Positions 9,509 to 22,691 of a DNA stretch of 64,000 bases are shown here, one piece after another. How positions within the stretch are numbered: position 1 is the first letter of the stretch; each line of letters starts with the position of its first letter. The position numbers and the translations under genes were made by a program. The stretch lies in NCBI RefSeq assembly GCF_004348545.1, contig NZ_SMKL01000017.1, positions 1 through 64,000 on the forward strand, written 5' to 3'. The notes under the pieces are model-generated. The model made no database searches and was not told the DNA's origin. It was given only the letters and a program-made list of their open reading frames with translations. This stretch comes from Jiangella ureilytica (lineage in GTDB: Bacteria > Actinomycetota > Actinomycetes > Jiangellales > Jiangellaceae).

Positions 9509-10204
9509 GTGCCGCACACCGCGCTGCCGCCCGACGACGTCCTCGCCGGCCTCCTGCTGGCCGGCGACGAGACGGCGTTCGCGCAGGTCGTCGACGCGTG
9601 GTCGCCCGGCATGGTCCGCTTGGCCCGGGTCTACGTGTCCACCGAGGACTCCGCCGCCGAGGTGGTGCAAGAGGCCTGGCTGGCCGTCGTCCGCAGCATC
9701 GCGACGTTCGCCGGCCGGTCGTCGCTGCGCACCTGGGTCTACCGCATCGTCGCCAACATCGCGCGCCGCCGCGGCGGGCGCGAGGCGCGGACGGTCCCGG
9801 CCAGCAGCCTCGGCGCCGGCCCGGGCACCGACGACGCCGGCCCGGGCACCGGCGACACCGGCGGCCCCACCGTCGACCCCGCCCGGTTCGCCGCACCCGG
9901 ACACCCCTTCGCCGGGCACTGGCAGCAGCCGCCGGCGCCCTGGCCCGGCCCCGAGCAGGCGCTGCTGGCGGCCGAGGTCCGAGCCGAGGTGGCCGCCGCG
10001 CTGGCCGGGCTGCCGGCCCGGCAACGGGTCGTCATCACCCTGCGCGACGTGCACGGCTACGACTCCGCCGAAGTGTGCTCGATACTGGAGATCTCGGTGG
10101 CGAACCAGCGGGTGCTGCTGCACCGGGCCCGGGCGGCGGTCCGGCTCCGGCTCGAGCGGTACTTCGACCACGCCGCCGCCCGCGCCGCAGAGGAGGTGCC
10201 ATGA
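9509..10204 (+). CDS. ECF RNA polymerase sigma factor
   Basis: ECF sigma factor of 231 residues. Region 2 spans about residues 15-90 (DETAFAQVVDAW to RTWVYRIVANIARRR) and region 4 about 165-225 (LPARQRVVITLRDVHGYDSAEVCSILEIS). They are joined by an unusually long, Gly/Pro/Thr-rich linker of about 60 residues with repeated GPGTDDAGPGTGDT. The GTG at 9509 puts region 2 at the normal distance from the N-terminus; the upstream open frame is antisense to the exporter. Its stop overlaps the anti-sigma start by four bases, so the pair is a translationally coupled sigma/anti-sigma unit. Confidence 0.88.
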   Translation: MPHTALPPDDVLAGLLLAGDETAFAQVVDAWSPGMVRLARVYVSTEDSAAEVVQEAWLAVVRSIATFAGRSSLRTWVYRIVANIARRRGGREARTVPASSLGAGPGTDDAGPGTGDTGGPTVDPARFAAPGHPFAGHWQQPPAPWPGPEQALLAAEVRAEVAAALAGLPARQRVVITLRDVHGYDSAEVCSILEISVANQRVLLHRARAAVRLRLERYFDHAAARAAEEVP

Positions 10205-16377: not shown

Positions 16378-16628
16378 ATGACGTCGTGGACCGAGACGTT
16401 CGAGCGGCTCACGACACGTACAGCAGCACGATCGGCCGGCCGGCGGTCTTCCGCGCCTCGCTGGTCGACGCCGCCGCGACGTGCCCGCCGCCGTCGGCTA
16501 CCGCCTCGAGCGCGTCGTCGGCCGGGCCTTCCGGCCGGCGACGGGGGACGACGCCGGCCCGCCTCCGCGGGCGCCCGGCGACCCTCCGGGTGATCTTCGC
16601 TCGTTCGGCCACGGCGGGGCGGTGAGAT
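16378..16628. other. Decayed intergenic stretch between IclR and NAS-like genes
   Basis: An ATG at 16378 on the plus strand opens a plausible start (MTSWTETFERLT) in the position where IclR regulators usually have a divergent target, but after about 12 codons the frame turns into low-quality Arg-rich sequence. On the minus strand, the segment around 16409-16460 reads EARKTAGRPIVLLYVS and a stop, which looks like the true C-terminus of an unidentified protein. The simplest reading is two truncated genes joined by deletion. No intact gene is seen here. Confidence 0.35.
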
Positions 16629-17510
16629 GTGGGACCATCGATCGCGATGAACATGAGTCTCACTAGCAACAAATTCGGTCAAACCGACCTGGCCGACCCC
16701 GGCCGGCCCACGGCCGAGGACATTACTGCGTCGGTGGGCGACGTGTACCGCGAACTGGCGAGCCGCGACGATCTTCGTCCCGGACTCGAGGTCGACGGCC
16801 TCTTCGACCGCCTGGTCCGGCTCGTTCTCACCGCTCCCGCCGAGACGGTGCCGGCGGTCCTCGACGACATCGAGATGCGGCACCTCGCCCCGCGGCTGCG
16901 CGCCCTGTGCGCCCGCGGCGAGGGCGAGCTCGAGCACGCCTGGGCGAACCGGATCGTCGCCGCCCGCTCGGCACGCGACGAACTGCTGAGGTTCCCGTAC
17001 GCCGGCAACTACCGGCGGCTCAGCCGCATGGAGGTCGGCATGCTGGCGTCGGCGTTGCCGCCGAGGGTGCGGTCGCTGGCGTTCGTCGGCTCCGGCCCGC
17101 TGCCGCTGAGCTCGCTGTACCTCGCCGCCGAGCTCGAGGTCCACGTGGACAACTTCGACCGCGACCCGGTGGCGCTCGCGGCCGGCGCCCGGGTGGCGGC
17201 GGCGCTCGGCCACGACGCACTCTGCTTCCGCGAGGCCGACGTGCTGGACGCGGACCTGTCCGGCTACGACGTGGTCGTGCTGGCCGCGCTGGTCGGCGAC
17301 ACCCCCGAGGCGAAGCGGCGGATCCTCGGCCGGCTCGCGCGGACCATGCGGCCGGGCGCGATCCTGCTCGCCCGCAGCGCCCGCGGCCTGCGCACGCTGC
17401 TCTACCCGCCGATCGACCGGACCGCGCTCGACGGGTTCGAGCTCCTGACGGAGGTGCACCCGGTGAACGACGTCATCAACTCGGCGATCCTGGCCCGGGC
17501 AGGGGGCTGA
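16629..17510 (+). CDS. Nicotianamine synthase-like protein
   Basis: SAM-using enzyme of 293 residues (GTG 16629; ATG 16647 would give 287). The Rossmann half matches plant and bacterial nicotianamine synthases closely: LAFVGSGPLPLSSLYLA (about 157-173), VDNFDRDP (about 182-189), YDVVVLAALVGD (about 218-229), LARSARGLRTLLYPP (about 250-264) and HPVNDVINSAILAR at the end. NAS enzymes transfer the aminobutyrate of SAM to an amine, building metal chelators (nicotianamine, staphylopine family) or cyclising it. It is one base from the ATP-grasp gene, so the two form a unit. No opine dehydrogenase, histidine racemase or metallophore transporter is nearby, which sets it apart from the Cnt systems. 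Family call strong, product unknown. Confidence 0.87.
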   Translation: MGPSIAMNMSLTSNKFGQTDLADPGRPTAEDITASVGDVYRELASRDDLRPGLEVDGLFDRLVRLVLTAPAETVPAVLDDIEMRHLAPRLRALCARGEGELEHAWANRIVAARSARDELLRFPYAGNYRRLSRMEVGMLASALPPRVRSLAFVGSGPLPLSSLYLAAELEVHVDNFDRDPVALAAGARVAAALGHDALCFREADVLDADLSGYDVVVLAALVGDTPEAKRRILGRLARTMRPGAILLARSARGLRTLLYPPIDRTALDGFELLTEVHPVNDVINSAILARAGG

Positions 17511-17511
17511 C

Positions 17512-18777
17512 GTGGCGACGCTACTCATGGTCGAGAGCTGGGTGCAGTCGACGGGGCTCGCGCTGCCGCCGCTGTTGCGTGAGCTGGGGCACGACTACAT
17601 CCTGTTCACCAGGGATCCGGCGCTCTACCCGGACGTGGACGGCGAGCGGCACCCCGTCGTGCGCGACGCCGACGAGGTGGTCGTCGTCGACACCAACGAC
17701 CGCGCGGCCATGACCGGCGCCGTCATCGGGATCGTCTGCCGGCGGCGCATCGACGGCGTGCTCACGACCTGCGACTATTACCTCGACGCGGTCGCAGAGC
17801 TGGCGAGGATGCTGGGGTTGGCCGGCGCGTCGCCGGACATCGTGCGCCGCGCGGTGCGCAAGGACGCGGTGCGGACGGTGCTGAAGCGGGCCGGGCTGCC
17901 CGGCCCGCGCTTCGCCGTCGCCGCCACCTGGGACGACGCGCAGGCCGGCGCGGCCGAGATCGGGTTCCCGCTGGTCGCGAAGCCGGTCGACCTCAACTCC
18001 GGCACGTCGGTGCAGCTGGTCACCGACGAGGCGGGGCTGAAGGACGCCTTCTACGAGGTCACCAGCGTCGAGCGGAACACCCGCGACCAGCCACTGGCGC
18101 GCCGGCTGCTGCTCGAGGAGGTCCTCACCGGGCCCGAGCTCAGCGTCGAGGCGGTCACCGTCGCCGGCGAGACGACGGTCCTCGGCATCACCGGCAAGAG
18201 CGTGACGCCCTCGTTCGTCGAGGCGGGGCACGTCTTCCCCGCACCGCTGCCCTCGCCCGTCGTCCGCGAGGTCGAGGCGCACGTCCGGGCCGCGCTGACG
18301 GCGATCGGCTACTCGCACGGGCTGAGCCACACGGAGCTGAAGCTGACGCCGTCGGGACCCCGGATCGTCGAGATCAACCCGCGGCAGGCCGGCGGCTACG
18401 TGTTCGACCTGGTCCACCGGGTGACCGGCGTGCACCCGCTGGAGCTGCTCGTCGCTCTCGCCTTGGGTCGCGGTCCGGGCGCCGACGTGACGACGACGGG
18501 GACGGCCGCGGTCGCGTTCGTGCTGTCCCCGGTCGACGGTGTTGTCACCGCCGTCGAGGGGTGCGAGACGCTGGACGCGAACCCGGCCGTCGAGCGCTGG
18601 CAGCTCGACGTGCCGGGAGCCGTGCGCCGTCCGCGCGACAACAACGACCGCGCCGGCCACGTCCTCGCCGTCGACCCGTCGGGCGACCGGGCGGGCGAGC
18701 TCGCCGCGGTCGCCGTCGCCTCCCTGCGGCTGCGCCTGGCCGACGGATCCGTGGTGACGCCGGCCCCCGTGGGCTGA
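17512..18777 (+). CDS. ATP-grasp domain-containing ligase
   Basis: Carboxylate-amine ligase of the ATP-grasp fold, 421 residues, GTG start one base after the NAS-like stop. The N-terminal pre-ATP-grasp domain covers about 1-110. The ATP-grasp core includes FPLVAKPVDLNSGTSVQLV (about 152-170), LLEEVLTGPELSVEA (about 200-214) and the metal-binding end SHTELKLTPSGPRIVEINPR (about 266-285) with GG following. It resembles ligases that join amino acids in small natural products. It most likely amidates or couples the product of the NAS-like enzyme to an amino acid; that is inference from the one-base spacing. Confidence 0.88.
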   Translation: MATLLMVESWVQSTGLALPPLLRELGHDYILFTRDPALYPDVDGERHPVVRDADEVVVVDTNDRAAMTGAVIGIVCRRRIDGVLTTCDYYLDAVAELARMLGLAGASPDIVRRAVRKDAVRTVLKRAGLPGPRFAVAATWDDAQAGAAEIGFPLVAKPVDLNSGTSVQLVTDEAGLKDAFYEVTSVERNTRDQPLARRLLLEEVLTGPELSVEAVTVAGETTVLGITGKSVTPSFVEAGHVFPAPLPSPVVREVEAHVRAALTAIGYSHGLSHTELKLTPSGPRIVEINPRQAGGYVFDLVHRVTGVHPLELLVALALGRGPGADVTTTGTAAVAFVLSPVDGVVTAVEGCETLDANPAVERWQLDVPGAVRRPRDNNDRAGHVLAVDPSGDRAGELAAVAVASLRLRLADGSVVTPAPVG

Positions 18778-18882
18778 TCTGCGGCGGATCAACCCGCGAG
18801 AAGGTGTCGGATCGGGGCCACGCTGTTCGTAGCAGGGGTGAGCGGCGCCTACAGGGGCGTCCACCGTCCTGAGGAGAGCATC

Positions 18883-19461
18883 ATGACCGCGACCTACACC
18901 TTCGACGTCTTCTCGAGCCTCGACGGCTTCGGCACCGCCGGCGGTGACTGGACCGGCTATTGGGGCAAGCAGGGGCCGGAGCTGCTCGGCCACCGCCTCG
19001 CCGTGTACGGCGACGAGCAGCGGATGGTCTTCGGCGCGACCACGTACCGGGCGTTCGCGCGGATGCTGGCCGAGAGCACCGAGGAGTCCGAGGTCCGCGA
19101 TCCCTGGGTCACGCGGATGCGGAACCTCCCGACGACCGTGGTGTCGAACACCCTGCGGGGGCCGCTCGACTGGCCCGACGCCCAGGTCGCGAGCGGCGAT
19201 GCCGTCGACGTCGTCGCCCGGCTCAAGGAGGAGTCGGGCGTGCCGTTGCGTTCGCACGGCAGCCTGTCGCTGAACCGGACGCTGATGGCCGCCGGCCTGG
19301 TCGACCGCGTCCAGGTGACGCTCTTCCCGGTGATCACGGGCCGGACCGGGACGGAGCCGGTCTTCGGCGGCGCGGCCGACTTCGACCTCGAGCTGATCGA
19401 GAGCCGGACCCTCGACGGCCACATCCAGGAGCTGGTCTACCGGCCCACCCTGCACGGCTGA
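18883..19461 (+). CDS. Dihydrofolate reductase family protein (RibD C-terminal-like)
   Basis: Protein of 192 residues with the RibD_C/DHFR-like fold: start YTFDVFSSLDGFG, a nucleotide-binding stretch MVFGATTYRAF (about 47-57), and SHGSLSLNRTLMAAGLVDRVQVTLFPVITGRTG (about 124-156, cited for position). Many actinobacteria carry several such proteins; they are presumed NADPH-dependent reductases, not folate enzymes. GAGGAG lies 8 bases before the ATG. It is 105 bases beyond the ATP-grasp gene, so it may or may not be cotranscribed with it. Confidence 0.82.
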   Translation: MTATYTFDVFSSLDGFGTAGGDWTGYWGKQGPELLGHRLAVYGDEQRMVFGATTYRAFARMLAESTEESEVRDPWVTRMRNLPTTVVSNTLRGPLDWPDAQVASGDAVDVVARLKEESGVPLRSHGSLSLNRTLMAAGLVDRVQVTLFPVITGRTGTEPVFGGAADFDLELIESRTLDGHIQELVYRPTLHG

Positions 19462-19611: not shown

Positions 19612-21033
19612 TCAGGTGGCGGGGGACAGGGGGAGCCGCACGCTGAACGTCGTCCCTGAGGGGCTCGTCGTGTAGTCGATGGTGCCGCGGTGCCGCTTCT
19701 CGACGATGCGCTTGGCGTTGTCCAGACCCAGCCCGCTGCCCTCGCCCATGGGCTTGGTGGTGACGAACGCCTCGAACAGCCGGCCCTTGACCTCGTCGGG
19801 GACGCCGTGGCCGGTGTCGGTGACGTCGACGACGGCGTACTCGCCGTCGCGGTGGGTGCGAAGGGTCAGCGTGCCGTGGCCCTTCATGGCGTCGACGGCG
19901 TTGTCGATGAGGTTGGTCCACACCTGGTTGAGCTCGGCGGCGAAGGCGGGCACCGGCGGCAGCGAGGTGTCGTAGTCGCGCTTCACCTCGATCTCGCCGA
20001 GCTTGTGGCCCAGCATGACGAGGGTGCTGTCGATGCCCGGGTGCAGGTCGACCTCTTGATGGGCGGCCTGGTCGAGGTGGGTGTACTGCTTGATCGAGGC
20101 GACCAGCGTGGAGATGCGGTTCGACGCGTCCTCGATCTCGTCCATGAGCGCCTCGGTCTCGAGCGTGTAGCCGAGCCAGGCCAGCGCGGACGGCAGGTTC
20201 TCGCCGGTCTCGGCGGCGACGTCGTCGAAGAAGGTGGTGTCGAGGCCGGACGCGACGAAGACCGGGGCGACGTCGACGGCGTGGTCGAAGCCGAGGCCCT
20301 CGAGATGGTCGATCAGCTCGTCCTCGAGGTCGCTCTCCTGCAGCGGGCTGAGCGGGTCGCGCTTCTTCGCGGCGATCTCGACGGCGCGCTCCTGGATGCC
20401 GATGAGCCGGGCGATCATCGCAGGGTCGAGCGTGCCCGACGCGATCATGCCGAGCTTGCGCCGCATGTGCCCCACCCGGTCGCGCAGCTGCCCTGCCGCC
20501 CGGACGGTGGCGGCGGCGGGGTTGTTCAGCTCGTGCGCGAGGTTCGCCGACAGCGTGCCCAGCTGGGCCAGGTGCTCGCGCTGGCGCACCGTCGCCTCGG
20601 TGGTGCGGATGCCGAGGTAGAGCCCGTCGAACAGGTGCACCGCCATGGGGAACCACTTGCGCACGAACGCCGCGAAGGCGTCGGCGGGGAAGCGGAGGAA
20701 CCGGCAGTCGGTGACGGCGTGCAGCGACGTCGGGTAGGCCGCCGCCTCGGCCGACGTGGCGAAGGCGCGGACGGCGCCGGCGTAGGCGCCGCGGTAGTCG
20801 GTCTCGTTGACGATGACCTCTTCACCGTCGGCGTGGCGGACCAGCCGCAGGGTCCCGTCGAGCAGCACCCAGAGCGCGACGGACGGCTCGCCGGCGCGGT
20901 AGATGGTGCTGCCCGCGGGGTACGCGCGCACCTCGCAGGCGGCGGCGACCTCGTCGAGCTGCTCCGAGGACATGCCTTCGAAGAGGAACAGCGTGCGCAG
21001 TTCCTCGACGTCGATGGGCGTACCGGTGGTCAC
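19612..21033 (-). CDS. Histidine kinase with N-terminal cyclic-nucleotide-binding domain
   Basis: Soluble sensor kinase of 473 residues with no membrane segment. A cNMP-binding (CRP-like) domain fills about 10-130. The phosphoacceptor is His167 in LSANLAHELNNPAAA. The ATPase domain has the N box NQVWTNLIDNAVDAM (about 370-384), G1 DTGHGVP and G2 GEGSGLGLDNA. Its GTG overlaps the stop of the receiver/flavoprotein gene by four bases (GTGA), so the two are produced together and the kinase probably phosphorylates the fused receiver. It ends the two-gene unit. Input signal unknown; the domain may bind a nucleotide or act only structurally. Confidence 0.9.
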   Translation of the reverse strand: MTTGTPIDVEELRTLFLFEGMSSEQLDEVAAACEVRAYPAGSTIYRAGEPSVALWVLLDGTLRLVRHADGEEVIVNETDYRGAYAGAVRAFATSAEAAAYPTSLHAVTDCRFLRFPADAFAAFVRKWFPMAVHLFDGLYLGIRTTEATVRQREHLAQLGTLSANLAHELNNPAAATVRAAGQLRDRVGHMRRKLGMIASGTLDPAMIARLIGIQERAVEIAAKKRDPLSPLQESDLEDELIDHLEGLGFDHAVDVAPVFVASGLDTTFFDDVAAETGENLPSALAWLGYTLETEALMDEIEDASNRISTLVASIKQYTHLDQAAHQEVDLHPGIDSTLVMLGHKLGEIEVKRDYDTSLPPVPAFAAELNQVWTNLIDNAVDAMKGHGTLTLRTHRDGEYAVVDVTDTGHGVPDEVKGRLFEAFVTTKPMGEGSGLGLDNAKRIVEKRHRGTIDYTTSPSGTTFSVRLPLSPAT

Positions 21034-22691
21034 GTCGCCTCCAGGTAGCGGTGCACCAGCGTGACGGCCATGGCGCCCTCGCCGACGGCGGACGCCACGC
21101 GCTTCACGGACTCCGCGCGCACGTCGCCGGCGACGAACACGCCCGGGACGCTGGACTCGAGGTGGTACGGGGTGCGGGTCAGCGGCCACTCGCGCGGCGG
21201 ACGGCCGTCGGCGTCGAGCAGGGCGGGACCCGTCAAGAGGAAACCGCGTTCGTTGCGCGCGAATTCCGGGCCGAGCCACGACGTCGGCGGCTCGGCGCCG
21301 ATGAACACGAACAGCCGGGTGGCGTTCAGGGTCTCGGTGCCGCCGCTCACGGTGTCGGTGACCACGATGCGCTCGAGCCGGCCGTCGCCCTGGGCGGCGG
21401 TGACCTCGGTGCAGGTGCGCACCTCGATGCGGGAGTCGGCCTCGATGCGCTCGACCAGGTACTCCGACATCCGCAGCCGCAGGTCGGGGCCGCGCACCAG
21501 CATGACGACGCGGTTGGCGTACTGGGCGAAGTGCAGCGCGGCCTGGCCGGCGGAGTTGGCCGCGCCGACGACGAAGACGTCCTCGCCCTTGCAGCCGGCC
21601 GCCTCGTGCGCGGACGCGCCGTAGTAGATGCCGCGTCCGGCGTAGTCGTCGGCGCCCTTGGCCGGCAGTTGCGACCACCAGACGCCGGTGGCGATGACGA
21701 CGGCGTGCGCGGTGACCTCGTGGCCGTCGTCGAAGCGGACGACCCTGCCCTCGCCCTGGGCGACGACGTCGACGGCGGCGGCCGCGGTGAGCATCTCGAC
21801 GTCGAAGCGGACCGCCTGGTCGCGGGCGCGCTGGGCCAGCTCGGCGCCGGACACGCCCTGCGGGAAGCCCAGGTAGTTCTCGATGAGACTGCTCCGCGCG
21901 GCCTGGCCGCCGACGCCGGCGCGGTCGACCAGCAGCGTGCGCAGGCCCTCGCTGGCGCCGTAGACCGCGGCGCCGAGGCCGGCCGGCCCGCTGCCGATGA
22001 CCACGAGGTCGTAGAGCGGGCTGCCGGCGGTGGTGGCCAGGCCCAGCCGCTCGGCCACCTCGCGCAGCGGCGGCGAGGTGAGCACGACGCCGTCGGGCAT
22101 GATGACCGCCGGCAGGGACTCGTCCGGGATGGCCGCCGTGTCCTGCAGCGCCGAGCCCTCGGGGCCGCGCAGGTGCCGGTACGGGACCTGGTTGCTGGTC
22201 AGGAACTCCTTGAGGTCCTGGGTCTCGGACGCCCACTGGTGACCCAGCAGCGTGACGCCCTCGAAGCCCGGCCGGCTGTCGCGCGCCCAGTTCTCGAGCA
22301 GTTCGTCGAGCACCGGGTAGAGGTGCTCCTCGGGCGGATCCCACGGCTTGACCAGGTAGTGGTCGAGGTCGATGTCGTTGACGGCGCGGATGGCGGCCTG
22401 GGTGTCGGCGTACGCCGTCAGCAGCACCCGCTTGGCCTGCGGCACGACGTCCATGGCCTGTTCGAGGAAGTCGATGCCGTTCATGCCGGGCATGCGGTAG
22501 TCGGCCAGGATCAGCGCCGTGGCCTCGCCGCGCAGCGTCAGCTCGCGCAGCACCTCGAGCGCGCCGGCCCCGGTCTCGGAGCGCACCACGCGGTGGTCCG
22601 ACCCGTAGCGGCGGCGCAGGTCGCGGGCGATGGCCCGGCTCACCGCCGGGTCGTCCTCGACGGTCAGCAGCACAGGTCCCTGTCGTGGCAC
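21030..22691 (-). CDS. Receiver domain fused to thioredoxin-reductase-like flavoprotein
   Basis: Fusion of 553 residues. The receiver (1-125) is complete: acidic pocket EDD (12-14), phosphoacceptor Asp64 in LADYRMPG, Thr in LLTAY and Lys in LVKPW. A thioredoxin-fold-like spacer follows (about 140-215; QDLKEFLTSNQVPYRHL). The rest is a TrxB-type oxidoreductase with FAD motif VVIGSGPAGLGAA (about 230) and NADPH region VFVVGAANSAGQAALHFA. Where thioredoxin reductase has CATC, this protein has YYGASAHEA, so the redox disulfide is absent. The output may be NADPH oxidation or flavin-state sensing under phosphorylation control. GTG start after GGAGGG. Known architecture, no settled function. Confidence 0.9.
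   Translation of the reverse strand: MPRQGPVLLTVEDDPAVSRAIARDLRRRYGSDHRVVRSETGAGALEVLRELTLRGEATALILADYRMPGMNGIDFLEQAMDVVPQAKRVLLTAYADTQAAIRAVNDIDLDHYLVKPWDPPEEHLYPVLDELLENWARDSRPGFEGVTLLGHQWASETQDLKEFLTSNQVPYRHLRGPEGSALQDTAAIPDESLPAVIMPDGVVLTSPPLREVAERLGLATTAGSPLYDLVVIGSGPAGLGAAVYGASEGLRTLLVDRAGVGGQAARSSLIENYLGFPQGVSGAELAQRARDQAVRFDVEMLTAAAAVDVVAQGEGRVVRFDDGHEVTAHAVVIATGVWWSQLPAKGADDYAGRGIYYGASAHEAAGCKGEDVFVVGAANSAGQAALHFAQYANRVVMLVRGPDLRLRMSEYLVERIEADSRIEVRTCTEVTAAQGDGRLERIVVTDTVSGGTETLNATRLFVFIGAEPPTSWLGPEFARNERGFLLTGPALLDADGRPPREWPLTRTPYHLESSVPGVFVAGDVRAESVKRVASAVGEGAMAVTLVHRYLEAT

What the first reader, a model, noticed from the sequence alone, without database searches (positions are those of the whole stretch)
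16629..18777. Nicotianamine-synthase-like enzyme coupled to an ATP-grasp ligase
The first protein carries near-complete NAS signatures (VGSGPLPLSS, VVVLAALVGD, RSARGLRTLLYPP, NDVINSAILAR). One base later starts an ATP-grasp ligase. Known bacterial NAS systems (staphylopine, pseudopaline) pair NAS with an opine dehydrogenase; none is here. A NAS product amidated or joined to an amino acid by ATP-grasp would be a different chelator or an azetidine-carboxylate-type peptide. No transporter is adjacent, so the product may stay inside the cell.
Basis: partly seen in the sequence, partly recalled or inferred. Interest (0 to 1): 0.78.

Follow-up and report, generated by a model that had tools for sequence, protein, structure and literature searches.

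The report
Zinc-controlled nicotianamine synthase plus ligase operon
A two-gene unit in actinobacteria of the Jiangella group joins a plant-like metal-chelator enzyme (nicotianamine synthase) to a peptide-bond-forming ligase behind what looks like the cell's zinc-shortage switch, which points to an undescribed kind of bacterial zinc-scavenging molecule.

Summary
Observation confirmed. Window 16647-17510 encodes a nicotianamine synthase family protein (PF03059, 194 bits; catalytic Glu/Tyr of MtNAS conserved). One base later, 17512-18777 encodes an ATP-grasp ligase of the L-amino-acid-ligase type. The pair is adjacent in 20 of 20 near-complete family genomes, while flanking genes vary. No staphylopine-type opine dehydrogenase was found (control silent). 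New here: a 15-bp box at 16648-16662 is the window's best match to a Zur-type (zinc repressor) matrix built only from promoters of a zinc-importer/Fur-family regulator pair and type-B L31 genes of the family; its 16-mer is exact in all 20 genomes. Coding look-alikes of similar or higher score exist elsewhere. The ligase's nearest outside relatives head a conserved cluster (DUF364, SbnA-like enzyme, dipeptide epimerase, MFS, Nik-like ABC) with a Zur-like box upstream in 7 of 8 loci. Another actinobacterial synthase (G648) has two Zur-like boxes beside a Nik-like transporter. Most likely: a zinc-starvation operon making an amide-extended nicotianamine-like zincophore, the ligase standing in for the opine dehydrogenase. 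Product, substrates, regulation and transport are unproven. New variant of a known kind.

The parts
16647..17510 (+). Nicotianamine synthase family protein (287 aa from ATG 16647; alternative GTG 16629). Glu96 and Tyr122 (287-aa numbering) align with catalytic Glu81 and Tyr107 of MtNAS.
   Evidence: PF03059 194.3 bits; alignment to MtNAS 3fpe; Glu96, Tyr122 invariant in 20 rows; Foldseek best hit MtNAS, TM 0.77; role of Glu81/Tyr107 from passages of PMC10491745.
17512..18777 (+). ATP-grasp ligase, 421 aa, L-amino-acid-ligase type with LAL_C2 domain; GTG start one base after the synthase stop.
   Evidence: 3vot BL00235 4.1e-22; first five Foldseek hits are L-amino acid ligases.
16648..16662 (.). 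Candidate Zur operator TGAACATGAGTCTCA, overlapping the ATG.
   Evidence: score 17.8 with a matrix trained without any NAS site; only 1 of 63,986 window positions reaches it. The 16-mer ATGAACATGARTCTCA is exact at this locus in 20 of 20 near-complete family genomes.
16628..16639 (+). Possible extended -10 region, implying transcription starting at or near the ATG (leaderless mRNA). Inference only.
   Evidence: Conserved columns of the upstream alignment, read by eye; the sigma-70 consensus scan found no promoter in 16400-19000.
16675..16689 (.). Short inverted repeat inside the 5' coding part; CGGTCAAACCG core in 10 of 12 genomes of the genus. Role unknown.
   Evidence: sequences; listed as a stem.

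Best explanation
The two genes form a small operon that a Zur-type zinc repressor shuts off when zinc is plentiful and that switches on when zinc is scarce. The first enzyme uses SAM to link aminocarboxypropyl units into a nicotianamine-like chelator (nicotianamine itself, or a relative started on another amino acid). The second enzyme uses ATP to activate a carboxylate as an acyl phosphate and joins that chelator to an amino acid or a second amine, giving an amide-extended zincophore in place of the opine made by CntM in staphylopine-type pathways. The product is probably exported and taken back with zinc by transporters encoded elsewhere. Shown by computation: family membership of both proteins, conserved catalytic residues, conserved coupling, and a box matching those at the family's own zinc genes. 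Inferred: the enzymatic activities, Zur binding, that the ligase acts on the synthase product, the ligation partner, secretion and uptake.
For: NAS. Ligase. Coupling: ligase adjacent in 20 of 20 genomes holding the synthase; distances of the two proteins correlate at r = 0.95 over the 20 genomes (expected for vertically inherited genes, so only consistent); flanking genes change (19 of the 20 genomes). Zinc control: a matrix from 19 distinct sites at the zinc-importer/Fur-family-regulator pair and at type-B L31 genes ranks the NAS box first in the 64-kb window (17.8; next non-overlapping site 10.3). In 537 kb of other held loci 23 sites score at least as high, of which 19 are the same box at the other synthase genes. 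Unfiltered first-order Markov sequence gave 4 such sites in 12 Mb. Zinc metallochaperone AztD genes in G018 (489 bits) and G011 (490 bits, cut-off 400) have such boxes (23.0 and 18.4) at or before their starts, and neither was in the training set. The box uses rare codons (AGT 6 of 322 Ser codons, ACT 13 of 475 Thr codons in these two genes of the genus), yet both are fixed in the 14 genomes where it is in frame; in 6 of 6 genomes of two other genera it lies in a separate leader ORF. Ligase relatives. Standalone synthases: G648 with two Zur-like boxes beside a Nik-like ABC/MFS set; G364 about 2.4-3.3 kb from AztB (296 bits, cut-off 280) and AztC-like zinc importer genes.
Against: No product, activity or regulation has been measured. 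No transporter was recognised among the neighbours searched in the window. None of four full-length synthases examined outside the family (G098, G364, G648, Halocatena) has this ligase in the held flanks, so the synthase can work without it. G098 has no convincing Zur-like box near its synthase. The regulator taken as Zur is Fur-family, but no NCBIfam model names it above cut-off (best Fur 78.5 of 220; E. coli Zur 44.5 of 167). The matrix is not perfect: look-alikes at starts of the L9 gene score 17.8 and, in G012, 23.8; one inside an infB-like frame scores 17.8; a protease-like start in G004, G008 and G011 scores 17.3-17.4; and some high sites, such as 26.7 in G003, have no evident target gene. 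The family's ligases and the outside ones differ in a C-terminal motif (NPRQAGGY or NPRQGGGY against NPRPAGNR), so their substrates probably differ.
Confidence: 0.57

Rival explanations
1. The synthase makes nicotianamine as an intracellular zinc buffer under zinc control, and the ligase does a separate job, for example making a dipeptide, merely co-regulated with it.
For: Synthases without this ligase beside them exist in G098, G364 and G648; no adjacent transporter recognised in the window.
Against: One- or two-base coupling and strict co-occurrence in 20 of 20 genomes although neighbours change; the ligase's nearest outside relatives sit in clusters with a Nik-like importer, an MFS protein and, in 7 of 8, a Zur-like box.
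Confidence: 0.2
2. The first enzyme makes azetidine-2-carboxylate or an azetidine-bearing unit and the ligase caps it into an antimetabolite dipeptide, like the ATP-grasp genes noted beside azeJ-like genes.
For: ATP-grasp enzymes are named among neighbours of AZE synthase genes in PMC11794875 (passages and section 10). Nicotianamine itself carries an azetidine ring.
Against: The protein is a NAS family member with the MtNAS catalytic pair, and MtNAS and CntL head the PDB matches. Zinc control fits a chelator better. AzeJ itself was not compared directly.
Confidence: 0.08
3. A variant that overlaps the best explanation: the synthase, CntL-like, adds one aminocarboxypropyl unit to an amino acid (His, Glu), and the ligase extends that intermediate; no nicotianamine is made.
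For: [quoted passage not shown]
Against: The staphylopine CntL model scores only 15.7 bits (cut-off 350) and CntL is a weaker match than MtNAS. Starter choice cannot be read from the sequence.
Confidence: 0.3

Closest known systems
Nicotianamine synthase family (PF03059): plant/fungal NAS, MtNAS
   Same: Fold, catalytic Glu/Tyr, GSGPLPL motif; PF03059 194 bits.
   Different: Operon with an ATP-grasp ligase, behind a Zur-type box; product not known.
Opine-type zincophore pathways (staphylopine, pseudopaline, yersinopine, bacillopaline)
   Same: NAS-like aminocarboxypropyl transferase followed by a second, joining enzyme; Zur control is known for pseudopaline (PMC6103462, passages).
   Different: No CntM-type dehydrogenase found (control silent); an ATP-grasp ligase occupies its place; no adjacent transport genes recognised in the window.
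L-amino acid ligases (BL00235, BacD/YwfE, RizA)
   Same: ATP-grasp fold; nearest solved structures by sequence and by fold; LAL_C2 domain.
   Different: About 20-23% identity in the Foldseek alignments; substrate unknown; partner gene is a nicotianamine synthase.
   Same: Closest relatives of the ligase outside the family (39-44% identity); Zur-like box upstream in 7 of 8 loci.
   Different: SbnA-like enzyme (best match, but below the SbnA cut-off) instead of nicotianamine synthase; no PF03059 match in G076 and G091; own transporter genes.
AZE synthase (AzeJ/VioH) loci with ATP-grasp genes
   Same: SAM-derived amino acid chemistry next to ATP-grasp genes (PMC11794875).
   Different: A different SAM enzyme from NAS; no zinc link named in the passages read.

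Membership tests
Nicotianamine synthase family PF03059 | Profile match above the gathering score | tested here: met
   194.3 bits vs 27.1
Nicotianamine synthase family PF03059 | Catalytic Glu81/Tyr107 of MtNAS | tested here: met
   Glu96 and Tyr122 align and are invariant in 20 rows; role read in passages of PMC10491745
Nicotianamine synthase family PF03059 | Aminocarboxypropyl transfer from SAM | not testable with these tools
   needs an enzyme assay
Staphylopine enzyme CntL (NF033601) | Equivalog model cut-off | tested here: not met
   15.7 bits vs 350
Opine-type metallophore pathway | CntM-type opine dehydrogenase (PF10100) | tested here: inconclusive
   0 of 22 family genomes, but no control genome rang
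L-amino acid ligase / ATP-grasp | ATP-grasp and LAL_C2 domains above cut-off | tested here: met
   57.1 and 50.3 bits; nearest folds 3vot, BacD
L-amino acid ligase / ATP-grasp | ATP-dependent amide bond formation between amino acids | not testable with these tools
   needs an enzyme assay
Zur regulon | Operator matching boxes at the family's own zinc genes | tested here: met
   Matrix from the zinc-importer/regulator pair and type-B L31 sites; NAS box ranks first in the window. Look-alikes at coding starts exist
Zur regulon | A regulator identified as Zur | tested here: inconclusive
   Fur-family protein beside zinc importer genes in L170; no model over cut-off
Zur regulon | Zur binding and zinc-dependent expression | not testable with these tools
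   needs gel shift and transcription data
AZE synthase (AzeJ/VioH) | Closest similarity to AzeJ/VioH | not tested
   No AzeJ sequence was compared; NAS/CntL structures head the matches

The most novel reading that the evidence does not exclude
Actinobacteria have a class of zincophores assembled by ATP-grasp ligases rather than by opine dehydrogenases or NRPSs: in the Jiangella family a nicotianamine-type core, and in Streptomyces, Embleya, Rhodococcus and others an SbnA-type diaminodicarboxylate core, is extended by amide ligation under Zur control. The Jiangella operon would make a peptide-linked nicotianamine, which I do not know from any described pathway.
Probability: 0.45. Interest if true: 0.78.

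Novelty: new variant of a known kind. Interest (0 to 1): 0.64.

Why it matters
Nicotianamine chemistry is central to metal handling in plants, and in bacteria its characterised relatives end in opines. A synthase-ligase pair behind a Zur-type box, kept in all 20 near-complete held genomes of one actinobacterial family, predicts a chemically different zinc chelator from two genes that can be tested directly. It also links two otherwise separate groups of gene clusters (NAS-based and SbnA-like) through one ligase subfamily, giving a handle for finding zincophores that searches keyed on CntM cannot see; the authors of PMC7438024 state that limit themselves (passages).

Tried and rejected
Opine dehydrogenase search (PF10100) in 22 family genomes gave nothing, but the control genomes were silent too, so absence is not proven. 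The general Zur consensus with at most 2 mismatches gave no site in G000; with 3 mismatches it gave 15 in G000 against 2 for the reversed control, which led to the family's own boxes. IdeR, Fur, MntR and Nur consensus scans upstream of the synthase gave no conserved independent site; one IdeR-like site (15 of 19) lies in G017 only and probably belongs to the neighbouring aminotransferase gene (inference).

Regulon idea: the exact 16-mer occurs only at the synthase locus; the five copies with one mismatch were three protease-like gene starts, one site inside a coding frame, and in G002 a decayed second copy of the synthase 5' end. RNA element: no Rfam family at gathering score in the window; microRNA matches in one locus, all below their gathering scores, were ignored as artefacts; folding z-scores -0.8 and +1.7. 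Leader-peptide attenuation was considered because of the short ORF in two genera, but by eye only its first codons, which are the box, are conserved.

Literature (held PMC library only). 'nicotianamine synthase' + 'ATP-grasp' gave 2 papers: PMC5845732 seen as a listing only, PMC11794875 read in passages and section 10; neither, as far as seen, describes this pair. 'Zur' + 'ATP-grasp' + 'metallophore' gave 1 (listing only), 'nicotianamine' + 'D-alanine-D-alanine ligase' + 'metallophore' 0, 'Jiangella' + 'nicotianamine' 0. Wider searches returned 221, 14, 275, 12 and 17 papers, of which listings of at most 20 were seen and few opened. The Laffont and Arnoux 2020 review was seen only as a reference in PMC12454661, not read.

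Rows dropped: of 18 L31 loci, L191, L193, L195, L196 and L203 had weaker or no candidate boxes and were left out of the matrix. Partial synthase hits in G328 and G408 were fetched but not analysed. Alignment A1 used 16 of 20 family synthases plus G098, G364, G648 and Halocatena; A2 used 14 of 20 family ligases plus 8 outside ones. The first Markov control (0 in 3 Mb) counted only positions beginning with seven allowed triplets; the unfiltered repeat gave 4 in 12 Mb.
Full report
WHAT IS THERE. The window lies in a genome of the Jiangella group: six named Jiangella loci carry the synthase at 70-84% identity. Frame 16647-17510 (+) encodes a 287-residue protein, and frame 17512-18777 (+) a 421-residue protein starting one base after the first stop. 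Protein 1 is a nicotianamine synthase family member (PF03059, 194.3 bits, cut-off 27.1). Its best solved relative is MtNAS, and a profile of 20 relatives reaches MtNAS at 1.5e-33 and CntL at 6.2e-9. Glu81 and Tyr107 of MtNAS, named as the residues that deprotonate the acceptor amine in PMC10491745 (passages), correspond to Glu96 and Tyr122, invariant in all 20 aligned sequences, one of them archaeal. The AlphaFold model (pLDDT 86) matches MtNAS first (TM 0.77) and CntL next. The staphylopine-specific CntL model scores only 15.7. Protein 2 is an ATP-grasp ligase with a LAL_C2 domain; the L-amino acid ligase BL00235 is its nearest structure by sequence, and L-amino acid ligases fill the first five Foldseek places (model pLDDT 72, most of residues 1-88 below 50).

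HOW WIDESPREAD. In the family (which equals the order in the held set), 20 of 22 genomes have the synthase, 20 of 20 among those at least 90% complete. All 20 have the ligase directly behind it. The spacing is 1-2 bases in 19 and a 16-base overlap in one. Each of these genomes shows one match to the ligase at E below 1e-30, with seven candidates scored per genome. Genes around the pair differ between genera and partly within the genus (19 of the 20 genomes). Outside the family the synthase is rare: 5 of 396 genomes in a phylum sample, own included, and 22 of 393 in a class sample, of which 20 are the family. Four full-length outside synthases were examined: G098, G364, G648 and a Halocatena plasmid. 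None has this ligase in the held 17-19.5 kb: tblastn at E up to 1 found only one 28-residue match at 0.4. So the pairing is, in what was searched, a family-level trait and not a general feature of bacterial NAS.

A ZINC SWITCH. Aligning upstream regions showed an almost invariant block at the ATG in all 20 genomes while the sequence before it has diverged. The 16-mer ATGAACATGARTCTCA is exact once per genome, at this locus, in 20 of 20. To test whether it is a Zur box without circularity, I collected boxes at two classical kinds of Zur target in the same family. One is the region between a Fur-family regulator gene (taken as zur; no model names it above cut-off) and an AztC/ZnuA-like zinc-binding-protein gene (taken as znuA; also below cut-offs), 20 loci. 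The other is the type-B L31 ribosomal protein gene (131 bits, cut-off 86), 18 loci of which 5 were left out. A matrix from 19 distinct sites, none from the synthase, gives the window box 17.8, against 14.6-26.4 for training sites left out one at a time. It is the only one of 63,986 window positions to reach that score; the next non-overlapping site has 10.3. Unfiltered Markov sequence gives 4 such sites in 12 Mb, about 0.02 expected per 64 kb. Two sites not in training, in G018 and G011, stand at AztD zinc chaperone genes (489 and 490 bits, cut-off 400), the G018 box overlapping the gene start as at the synthase.

CAUTION. Coding look-alikes exist: L9 gene starts score 17.8 and, in G012, 23.8; a site inside an infB-like frame 17.8; a protease-like gene start in three genomes 17.3-17.4; and some high sites have no evident target. 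Two facts speak against such a coincidence at the synthase. First, in the 14 genomes where the box is in frame it fixes codons that are rare in these genes (AGT 6 of 322 serines, ACT 13 of 475 threonines, counted in 12 genomes). Second, in six genomes of two other genera it opens a separate 25-52 residue ORF whose TGA stop overlaps a possible synthase start (6 of 6; in G012 an earlier in-frame ATG also exists). In the window's genus the same stretch is fused in frame and is predicted disordered (residues 1-18, pLDDT below 50).

WHAT THE LIGASE'S RELATIVES SAY. The SbnA, NikA and MFS names are best matches below their curated cut-offs. The Jiangella-family matrix, applied unchanged, puts the best site of each 17-19.5 kb locus (15.7-20.7) 58-119 bp before the ligase gene in 7 of 8 loci; the eighth (L121) has only weak sites; two more distant ligase loci (L123, L124) have none. 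These clusters have not been tied to a product here. SbnA-type enzymes and nicotianamine synthases both build N-linked amino-dicarboxylate backbones (SbnA chemistry recalled, not tested), so a ligase that extends such a backbone by an amide bond would explain both settings. The two ligase groups differ at NPRQ(A/G)GGY against NPRPAGNR, which fits different substrates.

STANDALONE SYNTHASES POINT TO ZINC IN TWO OF THREE ACTINOBACTERIAL CASES. G648's synthase is divergent from two Nik/Opp-like ATPases, an MFS protein, a NikA-like binding protein and a fused permease (all below equivalog cut-offs), with Zur-like boxes at 10004 and 10095 of L111, ahead of the inferred Met start near 9999. G364's lies 2.4-3.3 kb from AztB (296 bits, cut-off 280) and AztC-like genes, but without a strong box at its own start. 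G098's shows neither in the genes looked at.

MECHANISM. Shown by computation: families, catalytic residues, coupling, Zur-type box. Inferred: a zinc-loaded repressor sits on the start region and blocks transcription; on zinc depletion a possibly leaderless mRNA is made; the synthase builds a nicotianamine-type chelator from SAM; the coupled ligase joins it through an amide bond to an amino acid or amine; the product captures zinc. Whether nicotianamine itself or a glutamate- or histidine-started relative is made cannot be read from the sequence (known starters). Whether it is secreted is open: in the window no transporter is adjacent, in G015 one is.

COMPARISON. It works like the opine zincophore pathways (NAS-type step, then a joining step, zinc control) but shows no sign of their defining dehydrogenase as far as could be tested, so it is not filed as one. 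It is a member of the NAS family and of the ATP-grasp L-amino-acid-ligase group by profile; the activities are untested. In the searches of the held open-access library that named both enzymes or both names I saw no paper that couples nicotianamine synthase with an ATP-grasp ligase; wider searches were seen as capped listings only, and subscription papers were not searchable. PMC7438024 mapped zincophore clusters with CntM as handle and says such a search misses systems without it (passages).

VERDICT. Observation confirmed, interpretation partly supported and extended: most likely a Zur-controlled pathway to an amide-extended nicotianamine-like zincophore. New variant of a known kind.

Noticed in passing
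L115:9001-18192 (Streptomyces angustmyceticus plasmid); also L116-L122: Conserved cluster of ATP-grasp ligase, DUF364, SbnA-like enzyme, dipeptide epimerase, MFS, methyltransferase and Nik-like ABC, with a Zur-like box before the ligase in 7 of 8 loci: a candidate zincophore cluster in its own right.
   Followed up: partly
L111:9118-16405 (G648): Nicotianamine synthase divergent from Nik-like ABC and MFS genes with two Zur-like boxes (10004, 10095); no ATP-grasp ligase match there, and no opine dehydrogenase recognised by eye.
   Followed up: partly
L015-L019, L025 (genera g2 and g5): A 25-52 residue leader ORF starts on the Zur-like box and its stop overlaps a possible synthase start (6 of 6), suggesting translational coupling; by eye only the first codons are conserved.
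   Followed up: partly
L147 (G002:C249:69187): A second, decayed copy of the synthase 5' end (box with one mismatch, then a frame resembling the synthase N-terminus that stops after 41 residues), perhaps a relic of a duplication or move of the locus.
   Followed up: no
window 16675-16689: Inverted repeat inside the 5' coding region; CGGTCAAACCG core in 10 of 12 genomes of the genus; purpose unknown.
   Followed up: no
L068:10320-15633 (G015): MsbA/CydCD-like ABC gene pair with a Zur-like box (13955) directly before the synthase, and a diaminobutyrate aminotransferase family gene on the other side of the box.
   Followed up: partly
L169:2009 and 2365 (G000 C82): Zur-like boxes before a type-B L31 gene and before a gene that looks by eye like a SAM methyltransferase; the latter may be a further Zur target.
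   Followed up: no
L175:1978 (G003): A site scoring 26.7 with the Zur matrix, among the highest seen, with no evident target gene.
   Followed up: no
window 19612-22691 (-): A response regulator fused to a thioredoxin-reductase-like domain (21030-22691), followed by a frame that looks by eye like a cyclic-nucleotide-binding histidine kinase (second part not searched).
   Followed up: no
L145, L146, L148 (G004, G008, G011): A protease-like secreted protein gene begins with a near-copy of the box and scores 17.3-17.4 with the Zur matrix; either a coding look-alike or a further Zur target.
   Followed up: no
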